A DNA stretch of 64,000 nucleotides from Clostridia bacterium (GTDB taxonomy: Bacteria; Bacillota; DSM-521; Neomoorellales; SLTJ01), in the NCBI GenBank assembly GCA_004347685.1, contig SLTJ01000001.1, positions 1-64,000 on the forward strand, read 5' to 3'. The notes under the pieces were generated by a model that was not told where the DNA came from, did no database searches, and saw only the letters and a list, made by a program, of their open reading frames with translations. Both the position numbers and the translations under genes were made by a program. Below, piece by piece: positions 1-15,829 of this stretch (positions within the stretch are counted from its first letter, which is position 1; each line of letters starts with the position of its first letter).

Positions 1-23
1 GACGTATCAAGGCTTTGCGGATA

Positions 24-504: not shown

Positions 505-1156
505 TCTTTAGTATACTAAGCAACGCTTCGCTGTTTAGAGTATCAAATCGCACCGAAAAAAGGATAGACTGACCCCTTGGTTAAAACCCGCGTTTTTTTG
601 CCGTAATCAGTTGTTTATGCCCTGGCAAAAAATCTAACTTAAAGTCTCTAATTACCACCGCGCTCATTCGCGTCACCGCTTGTGACCTCGTGGAGCTCGA
701 CGAGCCCGTCTGCCCGGTGAAAGCGTTCCAACTGGTGCCAGACGCGTCCGAAATTCCCCTCGCCCCTTTGGGGAGCAGGAGCAAGACTTTATGCTTGCGG
801 GCCAGCACCCGGAGGTTACCATCGGGCCGGCGTTCGATCACGGCCGCGCCCACCTGGGCCAGCTCAATGGGAAAGGAACGTGTTCCTTCAATACCTGTGG
901 ACCATGCAGATAATTTCTGGATAGCCGGAGGGAAGTCCTGGTCTATACTTGAGGACTTGTTCTGTGAGAGCATCCCGGTCGAAGTGAAGCATTGATTTCT
1001 AGGGAGGTCAAGGGGCTATGCCAATCCTAACCCACTCTCATGGCAAAGGCATCTCGGCTTTGATGCCAGTAGCTTCGTTTATCACCAGCAGCCACCCCAG
1101 CCTTCTCCACGCTGCAATTGCTCAACACTACTTTTGCGTGCGGGCTTCAAGGAACG
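505..1156. other. Gene-poor, degraded stretch
   Basis: No intact gene is convincing here. Short open stretches occur on both strands but lack recognisable domains. On the minus strand around 1020-1100 there is a short protein-like run (AGDKRSYWHQSRDAFAMRVG) with no start, which may be the tail of a lost gene. Near 510-545 there is a small imperfect hairpin. The stretch reads like accumulated gene debris next to the oxidoreductase remnant. Confidence 0.4.
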
Positions 1157-2509: not shown

Positions 2510-3211
2510 CTAGGCCAGCTCACGGAAACGATAGCCAACACCCCTCACCGTCTCGATAAGCTGGGGGTTGCTGGGATCAGCCTCAATTTTCTGCCGCAGG
2601 TAGCGAATGTGCACGTCTACGGTCCTGGTATCCGCAATGTAGTCATAGCCCCAGACTTTGTCCAGCAGGTAGTCGCGATTGAGCACCTTGCCGGCATTGA
2701 GAACCAGGTGCCGCAAAAGCTCGAACTCCTTGGGAGTTAGATCCTGGCGCCGGTCGCCCACGTAGACTTCGTACCGGCCGGGCCGGAGGGTAATGGGCCC
2801 GGCCCGGATGACTTCAAGTTCCGGGCTGGCCTCCATGGTTGCCCGGCGCAAAATAGCCTTTACCCTGGCCACCAGTTCCCGCGGGCTGAAGGGCTTGGTA
2901 ATGTAATCGTCAGCCCCTGTCTCCAGGCCTAGCACCTTATCTGCCTCCTGGCTCCTGGCCGTGAGCATGATCACCGGCAACCTTGAAGTGGCGGCATCGC
3001 CCCTGATCCGGCGACAGATTTCCATGCCGTCCAGCCCGGGCAGCATGAGATCCAGCAGTACCAGATCCGGGTTCTCCCGCAGCTTGTTTAAGGCCTCGTG
3101 CCCATCATAAGCTATAATTACCCGGTAGCCTTCCTTCTCCAGGTTGAAGCGTAAAAGCTCCACTATCGGCGCTTCATCCTCCACTACCAGTATTTTAGCC
3201 AGCCCGACCAC
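2510..3211 (-). CDS. PhoP/OmpR-family response regulator
   Basis: A 233-residue DNA-binding response regulator. The receiver domain (about 5-120) has the acidic pair VVEDE, the phospho-acceptor Asp in LVLLDLMLPG (about residue 55) and the conserved Lys in TKPFSPREL. The C-terminal OmpR-type winged helix (about 135-230) has the usual LTPKEFELLRHL and TRTVDVHIRYLRQKIE signatures. It lies immediately upstream of the kinase gene on the same strand with no gap, so it is the kinase's likely partner. The start could also be a few codons further in, since the conserved domain begins AKILVVEDE. Confidence 0.92.
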   Translation of the reverse strand: MVGLAKILVVEDEAPIVELLRFNLEKEGYRVIIAYDGHEALNKLRENPDLVLLDLMLPGLDGMEICRRIRGDAATSRLPVIMLTARSQEADKVLGLETGADDYITKPFSPRELVARVKAILRRATMEASPELEVIRAGPITLRPGRYEVYVGDRRQDLTPKEFELLRHLVLNAGKVLNRDYLLDKVWGYDYIADTRTVDVHIRYLRQKIEADPSNPQLIETVRGVGYRFRELA

Positions 3212-3334
3212 CCCTTGGAGACAAGTTTACGCTTAATCTTTATACGTGTTGCCCGGCTTTCCTTCTCTCCTACGGTTAAATCTTTTTAACAGCTTATAGC
3301 AAATACTACCATTAATCCCACTCTAAAAGAATGC

Positions 3335-3793
3335 ATAACCCGGTAATAAACGGACATTCTATAGTTGCAAGGGTTCTTCAGGGCCGAGCCCAGACTGCCA
3401 CAGGGTCGAAAGGCTCTGTGGTGGTCGGCCAAAGGTTAACGCCGGCTCAAGCAGGGTCGGCGTTAGCCGGAGGGAAGATTGTTCAAGGTTCGGTTTGGGC
3501 TCGCGGGCAGTTCTTGGACTGTTCGTGGGTCCTCAAGGATCTTGAGCGGTCGAGCTAAGATCAGTGTAGTTGCCGGACCTAGCGGCGCTAGGTCGGTAAT
3601 TGCCTCAGAGGTAATTACCGGCCTTGTAGGTAGCTACCCTGGTCGAGCAAAGGTTAGCCCGGATTAATAAGTGGTTTTCGGCAGCCGAAAGGTTGTCGGG
3701 AGCCATGAATAACCCGCTCTGGCCGGCGCGCAGGTCCTGAAGGGCTCTTTGAAATAGGAGCCACCTGGATAAAATCAGGTGGTTTCTATTCTT
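3335..3793 (+). ncRNA. Candidate large structured RNA, unrecognised family
   Basis: No convincing protein is encoded in this stretch of about 450 bp. It is instead a series of compensable stems: 3382-3387 with 3425-3430 enclosing 3397-3403 with 3416-3422; 3434-3446 with 3456-3468; 3576-3583 with 3587-3594 (8 bp perfect, 3-nt loop); and 3596-3606 with 3608-3618. Two loops read C-GAAA-G on the plus strand, typical GNRA tetraloops, which argues for plus-strand RNA. The stretch ends at a terminator-like hairpin. It does not show hallmarks I know for tmRNA, RNase P RNA, SRP RNA or 6S RNA. OLE RNA is a possibility by size and host, but its usual neighbours are absent. Confidence 0.5.
3761..3793 (+). 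terminator. Intrinsic terminator after the structured RNA
   Basis: Seven-base-pair stem CCACCTG (3761-3767) with CAGGTGG (3776-3782), followed by a T-rich tail, TTTCTATTCTT. It faces rightward, away from the structured RNA, and lies just before the stop codon of the convergent LysR gene, so it may serve both directions. Confidence 0.6.
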
Positions 3794-3795
3794 AT

Positions 3796-4698
3796 CTAGG
3801 GGCTGATATGTTGTAAAAACTCGGCCAGGACTCTGGCTACCGGGGACAACCGCCCGGCCCGCCGGGTGGCCAAGTGCAGGGTGCGTGAAACCGGGAAGCC
3901 CGCGGAGCGTATTTCCTTAATTTGTCCCAGGGCGATATAGGGGGCGGCGGCCCAGCGGGAAACAATTCCCAGACCCAGTTCAGCCGCCACCGCGGTAATG
4001 ATGGCCTGGGTACTTCCTAGTTCCAGGCCCAGCTTCAGATCTTTTACTGTCCGCCCGCGGGCTGCCAGCACCTCCTCGGCCGCCTGCCGGGTGCCTGAAC
4101 CTGGCTCCCGGAGGATAAATTCCTCCTGTACCAGGTCCTGCCAGTCCACGTCATTGCCGACGGCCAGGGGACTGCTGGCAGGGGCAATCAAGATAAGCTC
4201 GTCAGCGGCCAGGGGAATAAAATCAACCAGCGCCTGCTCCTCCCGGTAACCGACCACCGCCAGCTCAACCAGCCCGGAAACCAGGCTCTCCAGGGCCTTC
4301 CTAGTGTCGCTGATTTCCAACTTTACTCTGATACCGGGATATTTCTGCTTAAACTGCCCTATCGCCCGGGGTAAGAAGAACTCCCCGGGAATGGTGCTGG
4401 CCGCTAGGCGGATCTCTCCTTCTTCGAGGTCTTGCACCCGCGCCATGGCCTGCAAAGCCTCATGATAGGCATTGACAATATCCCTGGCATACGGCAAAAA
4501 TTGTTTTCCCGCGTCAGTGAGGCTAACCCCATGCTCCTGCCGGACAAAAAGGCTGACTCCCAGGTTTTCCTCCAGTGACTTCACCTGCAGGCTGACCGCC
4601 GGCTGAGTGAGGTAGAGGAGTTCGGCCGCCCGGCTGAAACTGGCACACTCGGCCACCTGGATAAAGGTTTCTAACTGTCGCAGATAGATAGTGTCCAT
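3796..4698 (-). CDS. LysR-family transcriptional regulator
   Basis: About 300 residues from the ATG at 4698. An N-terminal winged helix (YLRQLETFIQVAECASFSRAAELLYLTQPAVSLQVKSLEENLG) is followed by a periplasmic-binding-protein-like effector domain (about 90-295). The open frame extends upstream to 4869, but those residues do not resemble the family, so I start at MDTIYLRQLETF. The gene is close to tRNA-Sec, selA and selB once the inserted element is discounted. Selenium-linked LysR proteins exist, but I cannot assign this one to that group from sequence alone. The CysL/CbbR-like class is equally possible. Confidence 0.88.
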   Translation of the reverse strand: MDTIYLRQLETFIQVAECASFSRAAELLYLTQPAVSLQVKSLEENLGVSLFVRQEHGVSLTDAGKQFLPYARDIVNAYHEALQAMARVQDLEEGEIRLAASTIPGEFFLPRAIGQFKQKYPGIRVKLEISDTRKALESLVSGLVELAVVGYREEQALVDFIPLAADELILIAPASSPLAVGNDVDWQDLVQEEFILREPGSGTRQAAEEVLAARGRTVKDLKLGLELGSTQAIITAVAAELGLGIVSRWAAAPYIALGQIKEIRSAGFPVSRTLHLATRRAGRLSPVARVLAEFLQHISP

Positions 4699-4928
4699 CC
4701 ATCCCTTCGCGCCGCCTTCTTGAGAGGCTGCCCGCAAAACTTCGCCTGGCCCTGTCGGGCTAGCCGGCAGTCGCTCACGCCTCGTGGCATTCTGCAACAT
4801 CATCTTGGCTCTGGTAGGCGGCGATTCAATACGTGTCCCGGCCATCTCCCTAGCTAGTATAATGGCCACCCTAGATGGGAAAATACCAGTGAAAGAAAAA
4901 TCCGCCCGCTCTTAAGGAGGGAGCAGCT

Positions 4929-5117
4929 TTGCAAGCCTACGTTGATCCCGACCTGTGCATCGCCTGCGGCGACTGCATTGATATCTGCCCCGAAGTCTTT
5001 GCTTGGAACGATGAGGGACTCTCTGAAAGCGTGGTTGACGAAGTCCCTGAAGAAACAGAGGATGAATGCCGCGAGGCCGCTGAGGCCTGCCCCACGGAAG
5101 CCATCGCCCTCCAGTAG
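4929..5117 (+). CDS. Ferredoxin, single [4Fe-4S]
   Basis: A 62-residue acidic electron carrier. It has CIACGDCIDICP near residues 10-21 and a distal CPTEAI, giving the four cysteines of a single [4Fe-4S] cluster (the CxxCxxC group plus the distal CP). Sequence and length match the small clostridial ferredoxin of Moorella thermoacetica (ferredoxin I), which moves electrons for pyruvate:ferredoxin oxidoreductase and CO2-fixing enzymes. The start is TTG at 4929, chosen because a strong GGAGGG ribosome site (about 4916-4922) lies just upstream. The gene stands alone between a minus-strand regulator and a minus-strand chemoreceptor. Confidence 0.93.
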   Translation: MQAYVDPDLCIACGDCIDICPEVFAWNDEGLSESVVDEVPEETEDECREAAEACPTEAIALQ

Positions 5118-5262
5118 CCCGGAACGGCAGCGTGCACCGACCGCGCGCCGGCTTTTCAGCGCAGACGCCCATGCCGCCTGCGGTTTCACTGAGGGCCCGA
5201 AGTAAGGTAAGAAGGTAAGAGATCCGGGATTTCAAAAGTGGCACAGCCTCTGGAATCCGGAA

Positions 5263-6999
5263 TCATAGCCGGAATTTCTCAGATTCCGCCTGCAGGCTGT
5301 CGGCTAGTTTCTCCAGAGCATCAGCCGTGGCAGACAAGGCCTGCAGGGCGGCCGCTTGCTCCTGGGAGACAGCCGAGGCTTCCTGGGAACCGGCCGCAAC
5401 CTCCTGCGACGAGGCCGCCATTTCCTCTACCTTTTCCCGGGCGGTTGCCAATTGACTTACCATCGCGGCTAGGAGGCGGCTGATGCCCTCAACCTCTCCT
5501 GCCGTACTGGCCGCGGCCTCCTGCACCCGGTCAAAGCTCCCCTGGGCCTGTTGGGCTGCTTCGCGGGTCTTGCCCGCCGCCTCCGTGTTGGCTGCTACTT
5601 CATGTTCCACCACCCCGGCGGCTTCCTGTACCGCCTGCACCAGAGCGTCTATTTCCCTGGTGGCCACGGCTGATTCTTCAGCCAGCTTGCGGATTTCATC
5701 TGCCACCACGGCAAACCCTCGGCCGCTTTCCCCGGCCCTGGCCGCCTCAATGGCCGCATTGAGGGCCAGCAGATTAGTCTGCTCGGCAATGCCGGCAATT
5801 ACCTGGGTAGCCCGGTCTATCCCGACGGCGGCCTGCTGCAGCATTTGCGTTCCCTGCCTGGCCAGCTCGGTAGCCTTGGCTTCGGCATCCACCTGCCGCC
5901 CCATACCAGCCATGACCCTGGTGCCCTCCCCGGCCATCTGGTCGCTGGCCACCGCGTGTTCCCGGATCTTATCCACCTGCCCCTGCAACTGGTGGGCCAC
6001 CTGGGCCAGTTGTGCCAGGCTCTCATTCAGAGCCTGCAAGCCCTGGGCCTGGCTGCTGTTGGCCTCGGCTATCTGGGCCACCACCCCGGCGGTTTCCGTG
6101 CCCTGCTGTCTGACCTGGCCCGCCGCCTGCCGCAGCCGGCTGACACTGGCTGCCACCTCCTGGGCCGCCTTCTGACTGCGGGCAATGGTGCTGGCCAGCT
6201 CCCGGAGGAACAGGTTAAAAAGATAGGCAACGTGCCCGGTCTCGTCCAGGCTGGTAACCGGCACCTGCACCCGGAGGTCAGTGGCCTGCCCGGCGGCCTG
6301 CTGCAGATGGCGGCAGAGGGACTGCAGAGTGGCGGAAAGACTGCGGAAAAGTACCAGCACGTAAAGGATCACGCAGCCGGCGGCAATCAGGAGGGGAAAG
6401 ATCAGGCCGACGGCCTTGCTGAACCCGGCCGCCTGCTCCAACTGCATGAAAGCTATCAACCCGAAAGACCCCAGGGCTGCCAGCACCACGCCCACTATTC
6501 CCGAACCGATTCTCTGGGCCAAAGGGAAGTAACCAGTGTCTTGGGCCATGGCCGCTTCAGCGACCTGGTCTTCTACGGCACCGATGCCCAAGACGTACCA
6601 GGGAAACCCAAAGCAAACGGTGGCAGCCACCCCGGCCAGGGTAAACAGGCCCAGGTGCAGCCAGTCAATGGCCTGCCCGAGGAAGGTAAGGGGGAGGCCG
6701 ATAAGCGGATAAATAATGATCAGGCCCAGCAAAGTGACCGGGAAAAGATATATCTGCCTTTGGTCACTTTCCTGAGCCTGGCCGGCCAGCACCCGGCTGG
6801 CCGCTGGGAATATGACGCGGTAGAGCCACGAAAGGGACAAAACAAGGTATACCACTCCGTAAGAAATAACCTGCGGGGCCAGCATCATGGAGATTACCCC
6901 GGACATGCTGTAGAGGCCGGTGAAAAAGAGAATGGCCCCCCATCCTACCGGGCTCAAAAGCAGCACCACCACTATGTATAAAGTGACGCGTTGACGCAT
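5263..6999 (-). CDS. Methyl-accepting chemotaxis protein
   Basis: A 578-residue membrane chemoreceptor. Six hydrophobic segments fill roughly the first 230 residues, rather than the usual two with a periplasmic sensor. A HAMP-like segment (about 230-275) and a long coiled-coil signalling domain follow, with the conserved hairpin tip [40 protein letters not shown]. The C-terminus lacks a CheR-tether pentapeptide. The multi-pass input suggests sensing within the membrane, for example of redox, a lipophilic ligand or energy state; this is inference. It is the first chromosomal gene left of the inserted element and lies downstream of tRNA-Sec on the same strand. Confidence 0.9.
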
Positions 7000-7083
7000 T
7001 GGCCATACCCCCCCTGTCCAAGTGTTTATCCGCCCTACTCACATGTTACATCCTCATAATGGCGTGAAACCCTTGTGTGCCAA

Positions 7084-7169
7084 TGGCGGGAGTGTGTGGG
7101 AATCGAACCCACCGCGCCCGGGCGTTACCCACGCGCCACTGGATTTGAAGTCCAGGGAACCCACCAGGA
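7084..7169 (-). repeat. Left attachment site: 3' fragment of tRNA-Sec
   Basis: Identical over 86 bp to the 3' portion of tRNA-Sec, from within the D arm through the anticodon (TCA), long variable arm, T arm and CCA. The 13 bases of the 5' acceptor side are replaced by element sequence, so it should not fold as a tRNA. It is the displaced original 3' end of the gene. Confidence 0.93.
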
Positions 7170-7222
7170 ACCGCAAACCCTTGTCCCGCAAGGACTTCCC
7201 GTTTTCGCTGTTTCCCAGCTTG

Positions 7223-7267
7223 ACTGGACTCCCCATTGTTACACAATTTCGTTTTGGGGAGTCCAGT
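7223..7267. repeat. 12-bp inverted repeat near left attachment site
   Basis: ACTGGACTCCCC (7223-7234) and GGGGAGTCCAGT (7256-7267) are perfect inverted arms with a 21-bp spacer. The ACTGGA core matches the anticodon-stem sequence of the attachment site and recurs near the right end, so it may bind the recombinase. Confidence 0.5.
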
Positions 7268-7296
7268 GGCTTACTTGTTCGCCATTTTCTTACCCA

Positions 7297-8265
7297 TTAC
7301 CTGCTAGGAGAAAAAAATTTTCTCTGCCATTCCTCAATGGCGTCATAGCGGTTTGTTTTAATACTCTCGCCTATGTCCACTGCGTCCCTTCCCTTAAACC
7401 TCTCCAGCCATGCGAGAAGCCTCTCCTGCGGCACGCCGACCGTCTTGGCTGCCTCCCCAACCTCCATGCCCCGAAGAATGACATAGCGGCAAGCCTTCTG
7501 TAACTGGCGGACCTTCCTTTGCTTGGCGGCGTTATTGGCCCCGTCACAGGAGGGACAACGGACCTTTTTGCAGTGCAGGAAGAACTGCCCGCAAGCGCAT
7601 AACCGCAATGGCATACCTTCGGCCAGCAGCATGGGGAGGCAGGCATAGGCCATTTCCAGCGGCGTTGTGGCCTCTGGCAGCCAATAGGGTTTTCCCTTGG
7701 CCGAATAGTGAATAACGACCGGCGCGGTGAGGGTAATCTTCGGCTGCCTGCCATGCAAGCGGACCATAGCAAAGACCCGGAAACGCTTGACCGCGTCCAG
7801 GAATACCGGCAATGGCTCAACGTAAGGCCGCATGGCGTCCTGTGTGACTTCCTGCGGCGAAATCCCCAGGAGGAATTGCACTAGTTTGCCCTCCAGCGGG
7901 AAGGCGTCCACGGCGGCCAGGCGGGTATCCACCAGGAGGGTATTCTCCTCCCGGTAGGCCCATAGGAGGCCCAGGAGGCCATACTGCTGAACATGCTTGA
8001 CGGCGCTTTCTTCGTCTGTAGCGTTGAGGAGCGACAAGCAGAATTCCGGCAGACTACTTTCCGCCAAGGTGTATACTTCCGGCGCAAGCGCAGCATGCAG
8101 TTTGGCCTTCTCCTCCGGCGGCAGGACCGTGACCGGCGCTTCTTCTCCATACTTCTTTACCCAGCGGTCTACCGGCAATCGTGGCTGCCAGGCCAAAACT
8201 TTTTCTTCCCTCTCTTGCCTTTCCCCCTTTGTCACCGAATACCCCGAACCCCGAAACCATCGCAT
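7297..8265 (-). CDS. Hypothetical protein, zinc-finger and HTH features
   Basis: 322 residues; not a family I can name. A cysteine cluster near residues 221-240 (CACGQFFLHCKKVRCPSCDGANNAAKQRK) resembles the CGNR/ABATE type of small zinc finger, in which Cys/His residues are followed by an Arg/Lys-rich helix. A following segment (GMEVGEAAKTVGVPQERLLAWL) looks like a helix-turn-helix. The ATG at 8265 has a GGGAGG ribosome site. It is divergent from the XRE regulator across a region with two operator-like sites, so it is probably repressed by that protein. Its position suggests an element-control or lysis/lysogeny-like role, but that is inference. Confidence 0.75.
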   Translation of the reverse strand: MRWFRGSGYSVTKGERQEREEKVLAWQPRLPVDRWVKKYGEEAPVTVLPPEEKAKLHAALAPEVYTLAESSLPEFCLSLLNATDEESAVKHVQQYGLLGLLWAYREENTLLVDTRLAAVDAFPLEGKLVQFLLGISPQEVTQDAMRPYVEPLPVFLDAVKRFRVFAMVRLHGRQPKITLTAPVVIHYSAKGKPYWLPEATTPLEMAYACLPMLLAEGMPLRLCACGQFFLHCKKVRCPSCDGANNAAKQRKVRQLQKACRYVILRGMEVGEAAKTVGVPQERLLAWLERFKGRDAVDIGESIKTNRYDAIEEWQRKFFSPSR

Positions 8266-8289
8266 TTTTCAATGCCTCCCGGCGAATGG

Positions 8290-8327
8290 GTAACTAGTTG
8301 CTTGCGTTTTTGTGAGTAACTAGTTGC
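8290..8327. promoter_or_regulatory. Tandem operator-like sites, divergent control region
   Basis: GTAACTAGTTGC occurs twice, at 8290-8301 and 8316-8327. Each contains the palindrome AACTAGTT, and the spacing is 26 bp, about 2.5 helical turns. The sites lie between the divergent 7297-8265 gene and the XRE regulator, where a repressor of this kind would bind. Confidence 0.55.
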
Positions 8328-8380
8328 CATTGCATGTCGTTACCTATGAGTATACCATAAGAGCCAGGAGGTGGCAAGAG

Positions 8381-8590
8381 ATGACCACGAAACTGCGTCA
8401 AGCGCGGTTGGCTGCCGGACTAAGTGTGACGCAAACCGGTTTCGCGTTGAGAGTCAATCCAAGCCTCATAAGTCAAATTGAGAGCCGGAGCCGGTACGCC
8501 TATCCCAAAATTCGGCGAGAGCTGGCGAAACTGCTGCAGGTAAATGAGCAGGAACTTTTTGACCCCGAAGGCATGGCAAAGTTGGCATAA
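8381..8590 (+). CDS. XRE-family transcriptional regulator
   Basis: A 69-residue Cro/CI-type helix-turn-helix protein, almost entirely the DNA-binding domain (LRQARLAAGLSVTQTGFALRVNPSLISQIESRSR followed by a helix ending ELFDPEG). The ATG at 8381 is chosen because AGGAGG lies at 8367-8372; the frame is open further upstream without similarity. Proteins this small usually dimerise on short palindromes, consistent with the two AACTAGTT sites upstream. It is the likely master switch of the inserted element. Confidence 0.85.
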   Translation: MTTKLRQARLAAGLSVTQTGFALRVNPSLISQIESRSRYAYPKIRRELAKLLQVNEQELFDPEGMAKLA

Positions 8591-8614
8591 AAAAACCCCG
8601 GCGGGGGACCGGGG
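8589..8614 (-). terminator. Leftward terminator-like hairpin
   Basis: CCCCGG (8596-8601) pairs with CCGGGG (8609-8614). Read on the minus strand, the stem is followed by seven T. No leftward gene precedes it, so it may shield the regulator gene from antisense transcription. Confidence 0.45.
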
Positions 8615-8633
8615 AATTTAAGAGGGTGATGAA

Positions 8634-9008
8634 ATGAGAAAAACTGGGAAAGAACCGTTTTTTGTCTTCACACCGCAAGGCCGCAAGGTCATTGGCAACA
8701 TTGAGCATGTTGGCGGCCAGAAGGTGCTGGTCAAGAAAATAGACCGGCAAAAGCACTTCCACAAAAATTTTGCGGCCTACGGCCTCCAGGCTGAAGCCCT
8801 GCCCCGGCTGCGGGAGGCTGGCGTCCAGGCGGTCCGGCTGCTGGTGGAGAACGGAGAAATCTTACAGGCCAGCCTGGACGACCTGGAGCGGTACGGCTTT
8901 CTACGGCAGTTTGGCGCGTTTGGTGAACAGGTTTTCTTGCCCGAGCGTTACTGGCACCAGGTGCGGCCCCCGGCGGGTGCGCTGGTGCAGTTGAGACTTT
9001 TCGCTTAG
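8634..9008 (+). CDS. Hypothetical protein of the element
   Basis: 124 residues, basic in its N-terminal half and without membrane segments; I recognise no family. An SD-like GAGGG just upstream supports the ATG at 8634. It is followed 24 bp later by the replication gene on the same strand, so it is probably co-expressed with replication. An accessory replication or excision role would be typical for the position but is not shown. Confidence 0.7.
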   Translation: MRKTGKEPFFVFTPQGRKVIGNIEHVGGQKVLVKKIDRQKHFHKNFAAYGLQAEALPRLREAGVQAVRLLVENGEILQASLDDLERYGFLRQFGAFGEQVFLPERYWHQVRPPAGALVQLRLFA

Positions 9009-9032
9009 AGAACGAGAAGCAGGTGACAATTC

Positions 9033-11168
9033 ATGTCCTCCTACAGTATAGCACAGACCGCATTGGAATACCAAGCCCGAGGCTTTTCCGTCCTGCCCGT
9101 TGACCGCAAAACAAAGCGGCCCCTGGTGGAAAGCTGGCGCGAGTACCAGACTAGGCAAGCTACCACAGAGGAAGTCCAGCAATGGTGGCGGCGTTGGCCC
9201 CAGGCGAATGTCGCCATAGTCACCGGCGCGGTGAGCGGCCTGGTGGTCGTGGACGTTGACGGCCCGGAGGGGGAAGCTGCGCTGCGCGGCAAGCATTTGC
9301 CTCCTACCCCCTGCGCCACAACTGGCAAAGGAAAGCACTATTACTTTGCCCACCCCGGCGGCCAGGTGCCAAACGCAGTGAGGTTGCTGCCCGGTGTGGA
9401 CCTGCGGGCAGACGGTGGCTTTGTCGTGGCCCCGCCAAGCAGACATGCCAGCGGCAGGCGTTACGAGTGGGTAGACTGTCTGAGTATTGCCGAAGTGCCC
9501 CTGGCCCCCTGCCCGGCATGGCTGCTGGACCTGGTACGCCAACCGCACCCCAGCGAGGAAAAGCCGAAGCTGGACCCCCTGCGGGTATTGGCCGGCGTGC
9601 CCGAAGGGGAAAGGGACAATACCCTATTTCGGTATGCCTGCCGGCTACGCCAGCAAGGTTTGACAAAAGAAGAAGCCACGCGGTTAGTGCTGGAGGCAGC
9701 GAAGAACTGCAAGCCCCCATTCCCCGAGAAACAGGCCCTGCTAAAAGTGGAAAGCGCATGGCGGTACGACAGGCCAGAGACCTTCCACCCGACCGACCTT
9801 GGCAATGCCCAGCGGCTTGTCGCTGCCCACGGCCAGGACCTGCGCTATTGCCACCCCTGGGGAAAGTGGCTGGTATGGAACGGCCAGCAGTGGCAAGTGG
9901 ACAACACGGCGGAAGTTATGCGCCGAGCTAAAGACACGGTGCGCGGCATGTACGGCGAGGCGGCACACATTGACAATGAAAAAGAACGGCGCGAGTTTTT
10001 ACAATTCGTGCTAAAAAGCGAAAGCCGGGACCGGCTGGCCGCGACGGTGACCCTTGCGGCGAGCGAGCCGGGCATTCCGGTGCTGCCAGGTGAGTTGGAC
10101 CGGGACCCGTGGCTTTTAAACTGCGCCAACGGCACAGTTGACCTGCGGACAGGAGAATTACGACCCCACCGGCGGGAGGATATGCTGAGTAAAATGACGC
10201 CGGTGGCATACGACCCGGAGGCAGCATGTCCCAGGTGGGAAGCGTTCCTGGAGCGCATCATGGCCGGCAATGAAAGGCTGATAACCTTCCTCCAGCGGGC
10301 AGTCGGGTACAGCTTAACCGCCAGCACCAGGGAGCAGGTTTTTTTCCTGCTGTACGGGACCGGCGCCAACGGGAAGAGCGTTTTTCTGACCACACTTCAG
10401 GCTGTTTTAGGAGACTATGCTACCCAGGCGGCCCCCGACCTGCTTTTAGCCAAAAAGGGCGAGCGGCATCCCACCGAGGTGGCTGATTTGCTCGGAAAGC
10501 GGCTGGTGGTAGCCACCGAGACCGAGAGTGGCAGGCGGCTTGCGGAAAGCCTGGTCAAGCAACTAACCGGTGGCGACAAGCTGAAGGCCAGGCGAATGCG
10601 CGAAGACTTCTTTGAGTTTGAAGCTACTCACAAGCTTTGGCTGGCCACAAACCATAAGCCGCGCGTGCGTGGTACGGACTATGCCATTTGGCGGCGCATA
10701 CGGCTAATACCTTTCAACGTGACCATACCTGTTGAGGAGCAGGACAAAAGTCTGCCGGACAAACTGCGAGAAGAATTACCGGGCATCTTGCGTTGGGCGG
10801 TGGAGGGATGCCTGGCCTGGCAGCGGGAGGGGCTGGGAGTGCCGGACGAGGTGAAAGCGGCAACAGATGCATATCGGCAAGAACAAGACGTTTTAGCGGC
10901 GTTCCTGGAGGACTGCTGCATAATTAACCCCCTGGCGAAAGCTGCGGCCAAGGACATATACCAAACATACCTGGCTTGGTGTGAAGAAAATGGCGAACGC
11001 CCCATGTCGCAACGGGACCTGGGTATGCAGTTGACGGAACGAGGCTTTGACCGCTTCAGAGGTGGGAAAAGCGGCGGGATTGTCTGGCGTGGCATTGGGC
11101 TACTTACTGAAGGAACTGAACGAACTGAACCTGATTTCCGGTTAAACAAGCTTGCCCCTCTTATATAG
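9033..11168 (+). CDS. PrimPol-SF3 helicase replication protein
   Basis: A 711-residue fusion. Residues about 1-180 form an archaeo-eukaryotic primase/polymerase domain (PrimPol), with GFSVLPVDRKTKRP, the acidic VVVDVDG and the later FVVAPPSRH. A D5-like region follows, then an SF3 helicase with Walker A GTGANGKSVFL (about 445), a Walker B-like acidic segment in LVVATETESG and an LWLATNHKPRVRGTD sensor stretch. Together these make primers and unwind DNA at an element origin, as in P4-like phages, satellites and integrated plasmids. Two large palindromes overlap and follow the 3' end and are the natural origin candidates. Confidence 0.93.
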   Translation: MSSYSIAQTALEYQARGFSVLPVDRKTKRPLVESWREYQTRQATTEEVQQWWRRWPQANVAIVTGAVSGLVVVDVDGPEGEAALRGKHLPPTPCATTGKGKHYYFAHPGGQVPNAVRLLPGVDLRADGGFVVAPPSRHASGRRYEWVDCLSIAEVPLAPCPAWLLDLVRQPHPSEEKPKLDPLRVLAGVPEGERDNTLFRYACRLRQQGLTKEEATRLVLEAAKNCKPPFPEKQALLKVESAWRYDRPETFHPTDLGNAQRLVAAHGQDLRYCHPWGKWLVWNGQQWQVDNTAEVMRRAKDTVRGMYGEAAHIDNEKERREFLQFVLKSESRDRLAATVTLAASEPGIPVLPGELDRDPWLLNCANGTVDLRTGELRPHRREDMLSKMTPVAYDPEAACPRWEAFLERIMAGNERLITFLQRAVGYSLTASTREQVFFLLYGTGANGKSVFLTTLQAVLGDYATQAAPDLLLAKKGERHPTEVADLLGKRLVVATETESGRRLAESLVKQLTGGDKLKARRMREDFFEFEATHKLWLATNHKPRVRGTDYAIWRRIRLIPFNVTIPVEEQDKSLPDKLREELPGILRWAVEGCLAWQREGLGVPDEVKAATDAYRQEQDVLAAFLEDCCIINPLAKAAAKDIYQTYLAWCEENGERPMSQRDLGMQLTERGFDRFRGGKSGGIVWRGIGLLTEGTERTEPDFRLNKLAPLI

Positions 11169-11212
11169 AGGTTTTAACCGGAAAATTGGTTCAGATGGTT
11201 CAGTTGGTTCAG
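11114..11212. repeat. Large palindrome 1 with CTGAACC iterons
   Basis: The left arm (11114-11147) contains two GAACTGAAC-type units and then TTTCCGGTTAAAC. The right arm (11171-11212) is its inverse with three GGTTCAG units. The loop contains CTCTTATATAGAG. The left arm encodes the last residues of the replication protein. Tandem short repeats next to an AT-rich loop and a helicase gene suggest a replication origin. Confidence 0.65.
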
Positions 11213-11252
11213 TGGCCGACTACGAGGAGTTTTTCTAGTGACCGACGAGGGT

Positions 11253-11353
11253 GGAGTAAGTGGACCAAGTGGACCAAATTTCGGTATAAACTCTACGCGA
11301 GGCTATATAAAAGAGTTTAACCCGAAAAAAGGTCCACTTCCTCCACTTCCTCC
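11253..11353. repeat. Large palindrome 2 with AAGTGGACC iterons
   Basis: Arms of 41 bp, 11253-11293 and 11313-11353, mostly complementary. Each has two AAGTGGA-type units followed by TTTCGG and TAAACTC. The loop contains CTATATAA, like the loop of palindrome 1. The layout (repeat units, then a CGG/TTAAAC segment, then an AT loop) mirrors palindrome 1 although the iteron sequence differs. Confidence 0.65.
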
Positions 11354-11435
11354 ACTTGTTGCCAATAACTGCCAGGACGAAGACGACCGGGAAACATGGG
11401 AGTTTTGACCACTTGGCAGGAGGGGGGGGTGAAGA

Positions 11436-11705
11436 ATGATGAATAAACCTGCAACAGTAAGGAAGCTGCCACCCTATCGTGGGCAACCCTACTGGGAGCG
11501 GGAGAAGCCCCAGGAGGCCCAGACCGACCGCATAGCCTTAAGTTATTACCCCCAGGCGGGCAAGCTGCAAATCTCCCTACTCTGGCCCGACCGGGAAACC
11601 GGCGAGAAGCGGCGCGGCAGGACCGTAACGCTGGACCAGGAAGACCTGGCCCTGCACCCGGAGGCCAGGGCGCTGCTGGCGGACTTCCTGGAAGCGGCGG
11701 AATGA
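11436..11705 (+). CDS. Hypothetical protein of the element
   Basis: 89 residues, basic and proline-rich at the N-terminus, with a short beta-rich middle (LQISLLWPDRETGEKRRGRTVTL) and an acidic helical end. No known family is recognised. A GGAGGGGGGG run lies just upstream of the paired ATGs at 11436. It begins the small-gene cargo row downstream of the palindromes and is followed 19 bp later by the PC4-like gene. Confidence 0.65.
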   Translation: MMNKPATVRKLPPYRGQPYWEREKPQEAQTDRIALSYYPQAGKLQISLLWPDRETGEKRRGRTVTLDQEDLALHPEARALLADFLEAAE

Positions 11706-11724
11706 GAAAAAAGGGGTGTGAAAA

Positions 11725-11958
11725 ATGGCGGCTTTTTTAATTCGCAAAAACGCATTTGAGCAATTATCAGTTGAGTTACAGGAATACGAGGGGAAGTTTT
11801 ACGTGGGTTTTCAAATCCTGGCCCGTAGCGAACCCGGTTCTGATGCGTGGATACCTACGAGGAAAGCATTCCGTCTTCGCGCTGAACTCCTGCCGGTGTT
11901 GATAAACGAATTGCAGAAGTTGCAGGAAGGAGCGGACGGCGAAAGTGCCACTGTGTGA
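11725..11958 (+). CDS. PC4/YdbC-like ssDNA-binding protein
   Basis: 77 residues. The pattern YEGKFYVGFQIL...WIPTRKAFRLRAELLPVLINELQKL matches the short PC4/Sub1-like fold: a beta-sheet with a basic TRK turn, then one amphipathic helix. Such proteins dimerise and bind single-stranded DNA. On an element encoding its own primase and helicase, a role coating exposed strands during replication is plausible. Assignment is from pattern only. The gene overlaps the next reading frame by 14 bp. Confidence 0.6.
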   Translation: MAAFLIRKNAFEQLSVELQEYEGKFYVGFQILARSEPGSDAWIPTRKAFRLRAELLPVLINELQKLQEGADGESATV

Positions 11959-12154
11959 AAACTGCGGCGTAGAAGTGGAGGGAAGCTGGCTGGACAAAAA
12001 CGGCGTATGCTTCACCTGTAGAGAGTATGCGGGACGTCAGCGGCTGAGGGAGCAGCGGCGGCGGGGTTACCTGGTGCCCCTGCCCCCTGTGCCAAACCCC
12101 TGGCCGGAGCGGCTACGCGAAGCCATTGTGAAAATTTCGCAAAGGAGAGGATAA
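11945..12154 (+). CDS. Small zinc-ribbon protein
   Basis: 69 residues from GTG at 11945. Two CxxC pairs (LCENCG near residue 4 and CFTCRE near residue 25) should bind one zinc. An Arg-rich segment (RQRLREQRRRG) follows and suggests nucleic-acid contact. It overlaps the preceding gene by 14 bp, a sign of translational coupling. Function unknown. Confidence 0.6.
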   Translation: MPLCENCGVEVEGSWLDKNGVCFTCREYAGRQRLREQRRRGYLVPLPPVPNPWPERLREAIVKISQRRG

Positions 12155-12157
12155 ACA

Positions 12158-12835
12158 ATGTCAAATTCGTTACGCCAACAGGCGTTAGACCAGGCACTGC
12201 GCGACATGGGTATACCCAGGCAGCGGGTGATTGTGGACTATGCCGGAATTTCTGGGAAGACTTACAACGCCCTTGTAGAAGCTATTGCTGAGTATGAGCA
12301 AAAGGCAAAAACAGCCAAAAAGAACCCATTTCAGCGGCGGCCAGAAGTGCCGGAGATTGACCTGGGGAAGGCCGTTGGGGAAATCAAGACCACCGTTGAA
12401 GTTGAATTCAAGCAGGACATGCACCATCTTGGCCGGCTGGACATGACCGACGAGGATATATCCCTTTTGGCCGAATACCAGCAGAAGGCCGTGACAGACT
12501 TCCTCCAGTTTGTAGCACGGCTGGCGCAGGACCTGGATGACCAATTGAAGGGCAACTTGCTCCAGCAAGTTTGGGAGTTGGCCCCCGAACTGGCCCCACC
12601 ACCCGAGCCAAGTAAAGAGGTGCTAAAGCAGGTGCAGGCGCTACGTAAGCAGGCCGAAGAAAAGGCCCGCCAGGTGGCGGAGGCGGCAGATACTATTAGC
12701 AAACTGCTCCAGGACCTTGACGGCTTGTGGAAGCAGGAGGCAAACCTTCTGCGCGGGACTAGTGAAGAAGGTCAGGGGAAAATCCGGCTTGTCTTGGAAA
12801 AGACTAGGCACCAGTTGGTCCAAAAGGGGTGGTAA
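12158..12835 (+). CDS. Hypothetical coiled-coil protein of the element
   Basis: 225 residues, with a good AGGAGAGG ribosome site before the ATG at 12158. The N-terminal 45 residues look like a small helical, HTH-like unit (GIPRQRVIVDYAGISGKTYNALVEAI). The rest is helical with long charged stretches (about 140-200) predicted to form coiled coil. No enzymatic motif is visible and I recognise no family. Confidence 0.65.
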   Translation: MSNSLRQQALDQALRDMGIPRQRVIVDYAGISGKTYNALVEAIAEYEQKAKTAKKNPFQRRPEVPEIDLGKAVGEIKTTVEVEFKQDMHHLGRLDMTDEDISLLAEYQQKAVTDFLQFVARLAQDLDDQLKGNLLQQVWELAPELAPPPEPSKEVLKQVQALRKQAEEKARQVAEAADTISKLLQDLDGLWKQEANLLRGTSEEGQGKIRLVLEKTRHQLVQKGW

Positions 12836-13124
12836 CGTATGGACTTGCGGGACCGGCCCTGGCCGGAGAGCTGGGCGTTTCGGAAAGGGAATTCTACCAA
12901 GTAAAAGCAGCGGTGTTGTGGAAGTTTGCCAGCAGGTTGGGGTTGGTTGAGGAAAAGCAGAGCACGTCCTGGCGCTGAACCTCCACCGTCGCCGGTGCTG
13001 ACGGCAAGCACTACCCGGCGACCAAGCCGAAGCCGGTGCAAAAGCCATACGTGGTGCTGGATAAGCCGAAGGATATTGAACGGGTAGTAAAAGCGGTTGA
13101 GGTGGCAGAAGAAGTTATCCCGGC
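12829..13124 (+). pseudogene. ParB-like tail fragment with in-frame TGA
   Basis: A single frame runs from GTG at 12829 through 49 residues to TGA at 12976-12978, then continues without a start through AGADGKHYPATKPKPVQ...VVLDKPKDIERVVKAVEVAEEV to about 13124. The second part resembles the DGKxYPA linker found in ParB-like and phage DNA-binding proteins. A stop in mid-frame, and a palindrome ending the coding part, point to a decayed gene. UGA read as selenocysteine is possible in this host, but no selenocysteine motif is recognisable around the codon. Confidence 0.45.
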
Positions 13125-13154
13125 AAACAGGTTCTCGATTTCGAGAACCTGTTT
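13125..13154. terminator. Perfect 14-bp palindrome, likely bidirectional terminator
   Basis: AAACAGGTTCTCGA (13125-13138) and TCGAGAACCTGTTT (13141-13154) are perfect arms with a 2-bp centre. Each strand carries a short T run at the stem's end. It lies where the rightward gene row of the element ends. Confidence 0.55.
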
Positions 13155-13975
13155 ATCTCGGTTGGCTGTATCCCAACTAATGCCAACCACCTGGTGGACG
13201 CAAGCCGTGGGACCCCGATGGCGCGAACTGACACGATGGCATACTTTGCGGCGGCTGGCGGACCTAGCCCCCCCAGGGGGAGCGGCCCGCCAGGAGGCCC
13301 TACAAGCCGCGAAAACTGACCGGGTAATGGTTCCACCTGCCCGGCCATTTTCTTTTGCTACAAGCCATTCTAGCGCGTCTGGCGGCCATGCGGCGTTCTT
13401 GCCTGCGTTTCCTTTTTTCCCTGCCCTTTTTGTCTCCTTCCAATGGATAAACAATCCAGTGAGAAACAAAAGACCCGCAAATCCTTGGTATGTCTAGCTT
13501 TCCCGAAAAGGACTATTCCTCAACACCACTGGATTCACCCTTTTTCCCTCCCGGCATGGGAAGAAATCCAGTGGGGATAGAGCGGGAGCGTCTTTCCGGC
13601 CTCCCCTAATCCCACAATAACGCGCCCTGGTGACAGCGGGGGGACTGGAAACATTTCGTAAATGCTATTTTTATTTTCGCTGTGGCGAACTGAACTGCGA
13701 ACTGACATTCTCCCCTTTCCCCTTGACGTATCTACCTTCCAGCCCCTTACCGGAAAACTAAAAAGTTGACGTTAACCTGCTGTCCCCTAGTGGTTAACGA
13801 TATTCCATATTTTGGCTAACGTATCTGCTTCACGCTAAGCCAGGTCGAGCATTGACAGACAGAAGGCCAGGCGGGGGCTCCCCACCTGGCCCTTTCCTAG
13901 GACCAATTCTTATAACTGTCTAATTGGGTAACTTAGCGGCTTAACTTCCTGACCGGCTTGCAGATTTGGCATGGA
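13155..13975. other. Noncoding stretch of the element with repeats
   Basis: No gene is convincing in about 820 bp. The stretch holds ATCCAGTG at 13454-13461; a perfect 10-bp inverted pair CCACTGGATT/AATCCAGTGG (13526-13535, 13565-13574); direct repeats GCGAACTGAAC and GCGAACTGAC near 13684-13707, resembling the iterons of palindrome 1; an inverted GTTAACC/GGTTAAC pair near 13770-13800; and a 12-bp near-perfect GC hairpin near 13868-13895. This looks like a regulatory or recombination region. Confidence 0.45.
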
Positions 13976-14539
13976 TTATTCCTGCGTCTCCCGTTGAGGT
14001 TCAGCCTTACTAAGAAGGAAATACCGTTGTCTGTTTATGGTGTCAGCAATTAATTCAGGGTTGTTGATACCCTTAAAAACGCTGTTGTAATGCTCTTTGC
14101 TGACCGGGTCGTCAAATTCCAACACCAGCACTTTATCCTTGGCTCCTAAGGCCAATAAACCAAAAAGAAATATTCCCATAGACGAAACCGCAGACTGCGT
14201 AGCGACATGGGCTCTGACCTGGACAAGTGGTATTTTTTCCCCCGCAATGGCAAGATTCGATTGACTAACTGCAAGAATTACTGCTCTTTGAGAACTGCCA
14301 AGCAGCGGATGATTGCCACCTATGAGTTCAGCGGTGGCCGAACACAATAGGGCTTCGTTACCTAAATTTTTTTGGGCAGCCTCTTGCGTTTTTTTCCCTT
14401 CATAGATTATACGCACAATGACAATCGCAAATGCTGCAAGAATTAGAAAACCCAGCTCGCTGCCCTGTACAGCTAATGTAATGCCCAAAAAAAGAATTAA
14501 GAGCAATAATACTATTGCACAACCTTGCCTTTCGTTCAT
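13976..14539 (-). CDS. Membrane protein with PH-like domain
   Basis: 187 residues. Two membrane segments lie close together at the N-terminus (about 8-50), a soluble region of beta-strand character follows (QRAVILAVSQSNLAIAGEKIPLVQVRAHV), then a hydrophobic stretch (about 120-135) and a charged tail. The middle resembles bacterial PH-like (bPH) domains that sit under membranes. It is AT-richer than its neighbours and transcribed alone. No known system matches; as element cargo it may act on phage or host-cell processes, which is inference. Confidence 0.65.
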   Translation of the reverse strand: MNERQGCAIVLLLLILFLGITLAVQGSELGFLILAAFAIVIVRIIYEGKKTQEAAQKNLGNEALLCSATAELIGGNHPLLGSSQRAVILAVSQSNLAIAGEKIPLVQVRAHVATQSAVSSMGIFLFGLLALGAKDKVLVLEFDDPVSKEHYNSVFKGINNPELIADTINRQRYFLLSKAEPQRETQE

Positions 14540-14638
14540 TCTACCACCTTCTTAATATAGAATTCTGGCCCACCACGGTTTTTCCTGCCAGTTGTACAAG
14601 AATAGGGCTAATTTTTGTAGCCGTCTAACTGGAGTAAC

Positions 14639-15577
14639 TTACTTGCCAACCTTCCTCACCCTGTTCCTCTGTGGCAGCAGGTTGTTCAGCGGTGAAGCCA
14701 TGTCGTGCTGTTCCCGTATGTCTCCCTGGGTGAGCGCCACGTAACGCTTAGTCATAGACAGGTCCGTATGCCCCAGGGTACGCTGCAAGGCCAGGGCGTG
14801 ACCTCCATTGCGTAGGAATTCCAAGGCAAAGCAATGGCGTAAATCGTATGGCCGGACCTTCACCCCCAGTTTTTTGCTGTAAGCCTCCAGCCTGTCTCCC
14901 CAAACAAATCTGTTCAACGGCGTGCCTTCGGCAGAGCAGAACAGCGGGACATTTTCCTTCCAGGCCGGGTGCCTGGCGGCCAGCAGGTCCCGTATGGCGT
15001 TGGCCGTCACCGGCATAATGGGTAGGGTGCGGCTAACCCTGGTCTTGGCGTTTTCGGCCCTGACGTAGACCTCTAAGGCGCGGAAATTCACGTCCTCTGG
15101 CAGCAGGGAAAACGCCTCTTTGGGGCGAATACCTGTATCCAGGGTTAGCAGGATTAAGGCGTAATCCCGCAATCCTGCAAACGTCTTCCTGTCTGGCAGG
15201 GTGAGGAGCTTCTTCAGCGTGTCGGCGTCGAGGCTTACCACCCTGCTTTCGGCTTTCTTGCGCTTAATGTCGGCCAAAGGATTGGCGGCATAAATACCTT
15301 CCTTGACGCACCACCCAAAGAATACCTTCAGGTAAGTTAATCGCAGGTTGAACGTGGCCGGTTTGACCTTTTGCGCCATATACTCCAATGCGGCGGCCTT
15401 CAGGCTTTCCTCCCGGTAGGCGTCCGGGTAGCGGTGAAAGAAATACTCGACGTGCCTCTTGTAGTCCTCCAGCGTGGTATCACTCACCCCCTGCGCTTGC
15501 TTCCACCACAGGAACTGCTTCAATGCGTCCTCCCACGTTTCCGGCGCTGCCTTGTCCATGCGCAGCACTTTTGCCAT
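14639..15577 (-). CDS. int: Tyrosine recombinase (integrase)
   Basis: 312 residues from ATG at 15577. An N-terminal SAM-like core-binding domain (about 15-100) precedes the catalytic domain with Arg in TLDTGIRPKEAF, the RPYDLRHCFALEFLRNGG box (Tyr in place of the first His, as in many integrases), the LGHTDLSMTKRYVAL box and its nucleophilic Tyr. It performs site-specific integration and excision and is the obvious enzyme for the tRNA-Sec insertion. It points away from the right attachment site and lies downstream of tRNA-Sec on the same strand. The start at 15577 has AGGGGG nine bases upstream. Confidence 0.93.
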   Translation of the reverse strand: MAKVLRMDKAAPETWEDALKQFLWWKQAQGVSDTTLEDYKRHVEYFFHRYPDAYREESLKAAALEYMAQKVKPATFNLRLTYLKVFFGWCVKEGIYAANPLADIKRKKAESRVVSLDADTLKKLLTLPDRKTFAGLRDYALILLTLDTGIRPKEAFSLLPEDVNFRALEVYVRAENAKTRVSRTLPIMPVTANAIRDLLAARHPAWKENVPLFCSAEGTPLNRFVWGDRLEAYSKKLGVKVRPYDLRHCFALEFLRNGGHALALQRTLGHTDLSMTKRYVALTQGDIREQHDMASPLNNLLPQRNRVRKVGK

Positions 15578-15587
15578 AAACAAAAAC

Positions 15588-15622
15588 CCCCTTCGCTTGT
15601 TTTTCGGGAAACAGCGAAGGGG
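15588..15622 (-). terminator. Hairpin before int: terminator and ribosome-site mask
   Basis: On the minus strand CCCCTTCGCT (15622-15613) pairs perfectly with AGCGAAGGGG (15597-15588), followed by GTTTTTGTTT and the int ATG. The 3' arm contains the int ribosome site. It can act as an intrinsic terminator for transcription arriving from tRNA-Sec, as a mask on int translation, or both. Confidence 0.65.
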
Positions 15623-15730
15623 AATCCGGTTAGGCTGAAGGCTTTCACCAAGCGCACTGGATTCGTGCTTTTTGGACCCTCAATGGAGTCATTGTCCAGT
15701 GAGGTGGTGAAATCCCTGCAATGCTAGATT

Positions 15731-15829
15731 TGGCGGGAGTGTGTGGGAATCGAACCCACCGCGCCCGGGCGTTACCCACGCGCCACTGGATTTGAAGTCC
15801 AGGGAACCCACCAGGACCCATCCACTCCC
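15731..15829 (-). tRNA. selC: tRNA-Sec (anticodon TCA)
   Basis: 99 nt including an encoded CCA. The anticodon loop CTTCAAA gives anticodon UCA, which reads UGA. It has the tRNA-Sec traits of a long acceptor, a very long variable arm and a five-pair T stem (GTGGG-TTCGATT-CCCAC). Acceptor pairing is seven Watson-Crick pairs with an eighth G/A position. Discriminator is G. It carries the serine that SelA converts to selenocysteine and that SelB delivers. It lies downstream of the yhaM-like gene in the same direction as selA and selB, and its 3' 86 bp are the right attachment site of the inserted element. Confidence 0.95.

What the first reader, a model, noticed from the sequence alone, without database searches (positions are those of the whole stretch)
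7084..15829. A mobile element that uses tRNA-Sec (selC) as its attachment site in a Firmicute
The 86-bp identity between 7084-7169 and 15731-15816 covers the 3' part of tRNA-Sec. The right copy makes a whole tRNA with its own promoter outside the element; the left copy lacks the 5' end. tRNA-Sec is a well-known island site in enterobacteria (selC), but I know of no described element of this type for Clostridia. Each integration restores the only UGA-decoding tRNA, so the element is tied to the host's selenoprotein capacity.
Basis: partly seen in the sequence, partly recalled or inferred. Interest (0 to 1): 0.85.

Follow-up and report, generated by a model that had tools for sequence, protein, structure and literature searches.

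The report
Mobile element inserted in tRNA-Sec
In this Firmicute an 8.6-kb mobile DNA element has inserted itself into the gene for the selenocysteine tRNA and restored that gene as it did so, and it belongs to a wider family whose members carry extra copies of the anticodon stem of whichever tRNA they use, apparently as landing marks for their recombinase.

Summary
Confirmed. An 86-nt perfect repeat (7084-7169/15731-15816; 88/89 when extended) covers all but the first 13 nt of tRNA-Sec and brackets 8.6 kb holding a tyrosine integrase next to the intact copy, an XRE regulator and a P4-family Prim-Pol/D5 primase-helicase with iterons. The right copy is the genome's only intact tRNA-Sec. The left copy has lost the matching 5' acceptor strand.

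Integrase relatives (42-65% identity) in other Bacillota nearly all lie just downstream of a tRNA (Leu, Trp, Arg, Met, Phe, Glu, Cys, Gly, Thr) or a tmRNA. One more lies behind tRNA-Sec (G265), and its congener G288 lacks the integrase at the same locus. A third (G164) lies beside tRNA-Sec in the opposite orientation, unresolved.

Additional finding: attP carries extra half-sites copied from the anticodon stem. In 30 sister elements these match the element's own tRNA better than other tRNAs (z = 6.5, 0/20,000 permutations; z = 4.5 in held-out elements), with a trough over the anticodon loop. I infer strand exchange across the anticodon loop (CTTCAAA, containing UCA) and accessory core-type Int sites.

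No exact empty site for the window element was available. tRNA-Sec insertion is known in enterobacteria; I found none described in Clostridia.

The parts
15731..15829 (-). intact tRNA-Sec (UCA), restored at the integrase-side junction; 15731-15816 shared with the left copy, the first 13 nt (15829-15817) only here
   Evidence: 75.1 bits, the only intact tRNA-Sec in the assembly
7084..7172 (-). displaced 3' tRNA-Sec fragment at the distal junction (86 nt identical, 88/89 extended); its 5' end is element sequence
15788..15804 (-). predicted core site CTGGA-CTTCAAA-TCCAG: anticodon stem half-sites around the 7-nt anticodon loop, the predicted crossover region (right copy; the left copy is 7141-7157)
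   Evidence: inferred from the positional scan over 30 sister elements and the known anticodon-centred class of islands (PMC4383910, PMC8371274)
15655..15701 (.). proximal attP arm: inverted pair CACTGGATT (15655) / TCCAGTG (15695), copies of the anticodon-stem half-site
7223..7268 (.). distal attP arm: inverted pair ACTGGACTCCCCA / TGGGGAGTCCAGT (7223-7267), same half-site
   Evidence: 0 expected by shuffling
13453..13573 (.). third cluster of the half-site inside the element: CACTGGATT at 13453(-), 13527(+), 13565(-); role unknown
14639..15583 (-). tyrosine integrase, 314 aa (TTG start; ATG possible at 15577), SAM-like plus catalytic domain and no room for an N-terminal arm-binding domain
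   Evidence: Pfam PF00589 9e-27; PHROG integrase 5e-45; XerC/D/A-like but far below those equivalog cut-offs
9033..11168 (+). replicase: Prim-Pol + PriCT-1 + D5_N/P4-family primase-helicase, 711 aa
   Evidence: PF09250 1.5e-40, PF08706 2e-39; TIGR01613 356 bits against cut-off 108.7
11106..11355 (.). putative replication origin: two 41-44-bp inverted repeats built of 9-bp iterons (TTGGTTCAG x3, TCCACTTCC x2 and their inverses) around AT-rich centres, overlapping and following the end of the primase gene
   Evidence: function inferred
8324..8590 (+). XRE/HTH_31 regulator, 88 aa
   Evidence: HTH_31 1e-6, above cut-off
8634..9008 (+). unknown 124-aa protein, also in the host's own second element at tRNA-Glu (32%)
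   Evidence: L081
11436..11705 (+). unknown 89-aa protein, 68% identical copy in the host's tRNA-Glu element
   Evidence: L081
11725..11958 (+). unknown 77-aa protein
   Evidence: no family
12158..12835 (+). unknown 225-aa protein
   Evidence: no family
7297..8265 (-). unknown 322-aa protein with a Cys-rich (zinc-binding-like) and HTH-like C-terminal part
   Evidence: no significant family
13976..14539 (-). unknown 187-aa membrane protein
   Evidence: no significant family

Best explanation
An 8.6-kb integrative, plasmid-like element entered tRNA-Sec by site-specific recombination. SHOWN: structure, gene content, tRNA restoration, and the sister elements. INFERRED: the integrase binds two inverted half-sites that are the strands of the anticodon stem (CTGGA...TCCAG) and exchanges strands across the 7-nt anticodon loop CTTCAAA. 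attP carries an 86-nt copy of the tRNA, so the host's 5' part is joined to the element's 3' part and tRNA-Sec stays functional, while the host's old 3' part is displaced to the far end. The integrase has no separate arm-binding domain; extra copies of the same half-site, as inverted pairs on both sides of the core, are accessory binding sites that build or orient the complex. Out of the chromosome the circle is expected to replicate with its own Prim-Pol/D5 helicase from the iteron region and to be silenced by the XRE protein. How it moves between cells is unknown: no relaxase, terminase or capsid gene was recognised.
For: 86-nt perfect duplication, intact tRNA beside int and broken copy at the far end. 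Only two tRNA-Sec in the genome. Integrase and P4-family primase. Sister integrases at 42-65% identity sit directly downstream of tRNAs in the same orientation in 32 of the 39 loci scanned, the window's own included. Complete sister elements of 6-8 kb end in a 3' tRNA copy: Leu 87 nt, Arg 59 nt, Leu 42 nt, with XRE or HTH plus primase genes. G265 has a 65% identical Int behind tRNA-Sec; its congener G288 shares 9.2 kb of flank at 80% and tRNA-Sec at 98% but has a germination-permease-like gene and no Int behind the tRNA. CACTGGATT occurs 6 times in 64 kb, all in the element (0.36 expected). The half-site rule holds in 30 sister elements (z 6.5), in held-out ones (z 4.5) and with one element per stem (z 4.0-5.1), and the positional scan peaks on both stem strands and dips at the loop. 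G265's tRNA-Sec has CTGGT...ACCAG instead of CTGGA...TCCAG and its arm has changed in step (AGACCAG / CTGGTCT). A prophage of Moorella reported as active (MTATph1, PMC11328732) has a 48% identical Int and the same arm plan around a tRNA-Phe core.
Against: No exact empty site for the window element. G265's distal end lies outside its contig, and the gene that flanks the empty site in G288 is broken by other DNA in G265. The G164 Int lies beside tRNA-Sec in the opposite orientation, without a detectable second tRNA copy. Some sister elements show weak or no own-stem match (L094, L100, L117, L119). The cleavage position and the role of the arms are not shown by experiment.
Confidence: 0.88

Rival explanations
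1. The element is a phage satellite (P4- or PICI-like) that depends on a helper phage for packaging, rather than an integrative plasmid. Integration works the same way.
For: P4-family primase; int + XRE + primase order resembles satellites; the E. coli P4-like retronphage phiR73 also uses selC (own knowledge); a related Int sits in a Moorella prophage.
Against: No terminase small subunit, capsid-size or other hijacking gene, and no cos-like feature, was recognised. The closest primase lies on a small circular plasmid (Thermaerobacter).
Confidence: 0.3
2. The element is a remnant: integrated once, no longer able to excise or replicate.
For: The 13000-13970 stretch looks non-coding, with an open frame broken by TGA; no recognisable excisionase.
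Against: int, primase and XRE are all open; both att copies are identical over 86 nt; attP arms are intact on both sides.
Confidence: 0.3
3. The duplicate tRNA-Sec arose by tandem duplication or recombination without the integrase, and the genes between are incidental.
For: Two tRNA-Sec-like genes a few kb apart could arise by duplication.
Against: The copies end inside the tRNA at the 5' side but at its exact 3' end; int is adjacent; the same plan recurs at many tRNAs.
Confidence: 0.02
4. The anticodon-stem-like repeats in the arms are terminators or regulatory hairpins and not integrase sites.
For: They are inverted pairs that can form hairpins.
Against: No T-run or terminator call follows them; their sequence follows the target tRNA from element to element, including the changed stem in G265, which a terminator would not do.
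Confidence: 0.1

Closest known systems
Anticodon-centred tRNA islands (Islander class A; PMC4383910)
   Same: intact tRNA at one end, displaced 3' tRNA fragment at the other, tyrosine integrase within; crossover assigned to the anticodon loop
   Different: tRNA-Sec in a Firmicute; attP arms made of copies of the anticodon stem that follow the tRNA used, which I did not find described
Retronphage phiR73 / phage P4 family (E. coli; own knowledge)
   Same: P4-family primase-helicase; phiR73 integrates in selC (tRNA-Sec)
   Different: the integrase here is a short Xer-like enzyme; no recognised helper-exploitation genes
selC islands of E. coli, including LEE and other islands (e.g. PMC6174562)
   Same: same target gene, tRNA restored
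   Different: other phylum, far smaller, unrelated cargo; no virulence genes here
Moorella phage MTATph1 integrase (OR602862; host described in PMC11328732)
   Same: 48% identical Int; half-site pairs on both sides of a tRNA-Phe anticodon-stem core
   Different: 176-kb tailed phage; attP appears to carry the 5' rather than the 3' part of the tRNA
Thermaerobacter sp. FW80 plasmid NZ_CP037897
   Same: closest primase found (54.5% over 90%), small circle with an integrase gene
   Different: its integrase is unrelated (26%) and no tRNA gene was found on it

Membership tests
tRNA-integrated genomic island (Islander definition) | intact tRNA at one end and tRNA fragment in direct orientation at the other | tested here: met
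tRNA-integrated genomic island (Islander definition) | tyrosine integrase gene inside the element | tested here: met
tRNA-integrated genomic island (Islander definition) | uninterrupted site in a close relative | tested here: inconclusive
   no congener held for the window; G265/G288 pair supports it for a sister element
Int family described here (at least about 42% identity to the window Int) | directly downstream of a tRNA, same strand | tested here: met
   32 of 39 loci including the window; two of the other seven follow a tmRNA
Int family described here (at least about 42% identity to the window Int) | arm half-sites that match the element's own anticodon stem | tested here: met
P4-type satellite | P4-family primase-helicase | tested here: met
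   TIGR01613 over cut-off
P4-type satellite | P4-type integrase with N-terminal arm-binding domain | tested here: not met
   314-aa Int starts at the SAM-like domain
P4-type satellite | helper dependence and packaging | not testable with these tools
   no packaging gene recognised
PICI-type satellite | terminase small subunit or capsid-size gene | tested here: not met
   no match in Pfam, PHROGs or NCBIfam among the element's main ORFs
ICE / IME | relaxase and, for ICE, type IV secretion | tested here: not met
   no match in Pfam, PHROGs or NCBIfam
Integrative plasmid | own replicase and origin | tested here: inconclusive
   replicase and iteron region present; autonomous replication not testable

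The most novel reading that the evidence does not exclude
A large family of short, arm-less tyrosine integrases in Bacillota uses attP sites whose accessory sites are additional copies of the target's anticodon stem, so that core and accessory sites must change together when the element moves to another tRNA. tRNA-Sec has been taken up more than once within the family, and the crossover runs through the UCA anticodon itself.
Probability: 0.5. Interest if true: 0.65.

Novelty: new variant of a known kind. Interest (0 to 1): 0.5.

Why it matters
tRNA-Sec is single-copy here, and the host cannot decode UGA as selenocysteine without it, so an element that enters it must rebuild it exactly; this extends a classic enterobacterial integration site to Firmicutes. 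The attP rule found on the way gives a testable account of how tRNA integrases change target: the sequence of the arms predicts the tRNA. That would help in mapping such islands and in choosing or retargeting integrases for thermophilic acetogens and their relatives, which have few genetic tools.

Tried and rejected
Viral contigs held no relative of the integrase, and only primase relatives without tRNA genes in the four checked. The genome-contig scan gave one relative, at tRNA-Leu. A search for doubled tRNA-Sec in 398 genomes of the phylum mostly yields second hits that look like other tRNAs: those checked in G005, G022, G023 and G053 were tRNA-Ser or tRNA-Cys. The two tRNA-Sec of G256 lie at contig ends with a shared stretch of about 137 nt and are probably an assembly break. 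A selenoprotein in the element: the frame 12829-13497 reads through one TGA but has no relative in 61 genomes and no domain, so I do not claim one. A second tRNA-Sec core in G164 within 54 kb was not found. One Sec-using integrase clade: not supported by the tree (p-AU 0.02-0.03), though the p-value assumes the group was chosen beforehand. Literature searches for tRNA-Sec elements in Clostridia returned none; only open-licence papers are held, and Williams 2002 was not readable.
Full report
OBSERVATION. The repeat is real. 7084-7172 and 15731-15819 agree at 88 of 89 positions, 86 of them in a row. Both are called tRNA-Sec, on the minus strand, by ARAGORN and Rfam. The right copy (15735-15829, 75.1 bits) has a complete acceptor stem; the left (59.0 bits) has GGGTTTGCGG in place of GGGAGTGGATG at its 5' end, can form only the first three acceptor pairs, and folds less well. 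No other tRNA-Sec exists in the 3.1-Mb assembly; the C12 hit over the cut-off is a tRNA-Cys and the next a tRNA-Ser. selA, selB and an HD-domain protein follow to the right of the tRNA and an MCP gene lies to the left of the repeat.

ELEMENT. Between the copies lie an integrase (14639-15583, minus) whose start is about 150 nt from the tRNA 3' end, an XRE regulator, a 711-aa Prim-Pol/PriCT/D5 replicase that passes the NCBIfam cut-off for the phage/plasmid P4-family primase, and several proteins without a family. Around the end of the primase gene two 41-44-bp inverted repeats made of 9-bp iterons look like a replication origin. I recognised no relaxase, secretion, terminase or capsid gene. The host carries a second, related Int (54%) next to tRNA-Glu(CTC) (L081); two small proteins of the window element have relatives near it.

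RELATIVES. Searching 61 relatives and then 398 genomes of the phylum gave integrases of 37-66% identity. In 32 of the 39 loci I scanned, the window included, a tRNA lies directly upstream on the same strand: Sec, Leu, Arg, Trp, Met, Glu, Cys, Gly, Phe, Thr; two others follow a tmRNA. Complete elements recur: L082 (tRNA-Leu, 87-nt repeat, 8.0 kb), L085 (tRNA-Arg, 59 nt, 6.4 kb), L039 (tRNA-Leu, 42 nt, about 6 kb), each with int, a regulator and a primase of varying type. The target was changed often: 15 changes of amino-acid type on a tree of 34 integrases, and holding the Sec-users together costs 26 log units (p-AU 0.02-0.03).

tRNA-Sec CASES. G265 (another family) has an Int 65% identical directly behind tRNA-Sec. 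Its congener G288 shares the 9.2-kb flank on the 5' side of the tRNA (79.8%) and the tRNA (98%), but behind the tRNA has a permease-like gene and no Int: an unoccupied site for that element. In G265 the matching permease-like gene is on another contig and is cut off by other DNA, so the far junction cannot be read. In G164 a 63% identical Int lies beside tRNA-Sec, but the tRNA's 5' end faces it and no second copy was found in 54 kb; restoration of the 5' half, as some islands do (159 against 3760 in Islander, PMC4383910), is one possibility. The variable arm of tRNA-Sec differs between the host's relatives while the 86 nt are identical in both copies, so the attP copy must come from the same or a very close species.

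MECHANISM. CACTGGATT, the 3' strand of the anticodon stem read backwards with two loop bases, occurs six times in 64 kb, all in the element: twice in the tRNA copies and four times elsewhere (0.36 expected in the whole window). With its close variants it forms inverted pairs at 7223/7262 and 15655/15695, one on each side of the core in the circular form, and a further set at 13453-13573. I then asked whether sister elements carry their own tRNA's stem. In 30 elements with different flanks, the sequence between tRNA and int matches its own half-site better than those of the other tRNAs (14.37 against 13.02 of 20; z 6.5; 0 of 20,000 permutations). This holds with one element per distinct stem (z 4.0-5.1) and in 22 elements that I had not looked at when forming the idea (z 4.5). 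Moving the test window along the tRNA gives two peaks, on the two strands of the anticodon stem, and a trough over the loop. In G265 the stem itself differs (CTGGT/ACCAG), and so do its arm repeats. The Moorella phage MTATph1, from an induced region reported as active (PMC11328732), has a 48% identical Int and the same plan around a tRNA-Phe core. Since this Int has no N-terminal arm-binding domain, the plain reading is that the extra repeats are accessory sites of the core type. That the anticodon stem-loop serves as core and overlap is established for other integrases (PMC8371274, PMC4383910); cleavage here is inferred.

PLACE AMONG THE KNOWN. As an island it meets the Islander definition except for the unread empty site. 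It is not an ICE or IME (no relaxase), and it is not filed as a P4 satellite or PICI (other integrase type, no packaging gene), though it may work like one. phiR73, a P4-like E. coli element in selC, is the nearest parallel (own knowledge). Searches of open-licence papers gave no tRNA-Sec element in Clostridia, which is weak evidence of absence.

VERDICT. The finding is right and its reading is right in the main. tRNA-Sec in a Firmicute is a new host group for a known site; the arm rule is the part that may interest specialists most.

Noticed in passing
window 12829-13497 (+): An open frame with a single in-frame TGA reads through into a GADGKHYPATKPKP motif of ParB-like look; no relative in 61 genomes and no Pfam domain, so most likely a decayed gene.
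   Followed up: partly
window 7204-7216 and 15606-15618: TTCGCTGTTTCCC and its inverse GGGAAACAGCGAA lie on opposite sides of the core in the circular form; a second possible pair of arm sites (read by eye).
   Followed up: no
L081 (host contig C10), 7408-11174: The host has a second integrated element at tRNA-Glu(CTC) with two integrase genes and relatives of two small window proteins.
   Followed up: partly
L130 (G164), 12923-14227: A 63% identical integrase lies divergently beside tRNA-Sec, with matching CTGGAC half-sites between them but no second tRNA copy.
   Followed up: partly
L181 (Moorella phage MTATph1), 5718-5906: Phage attP with a tRNA-Phe core that keeps the 5' part of the tRNA and half-site pairs on both sides; suggests restoration of the tRNA's 5' half.
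   Followed up: partly
L166 (G256), 4-6403: Downstream of a tRNA-Sec at a contig edge lie a DUF4007-like gene, a 1131-aa ATPase and a PAPS-reductase-like gene, which look like a defence island (named by eye).
   Followed up: no
L127 (G265), 4711-4813: Two 34-bp repeats (94% alike) 69 bp apart near the integrase, GTTTCTATTCC(T/C)GCAGTGGGTGCGGTAATA, resemble a minimal CRISPR array in the sister tRNA-Sec element.
   Followed up: no
L179 (NZ_CP037897.1): The plasmid record repeats its first part at the end (20-1056 = 6906-7942), so the true circle is probably about 6.9 kb.
   Followed up: no
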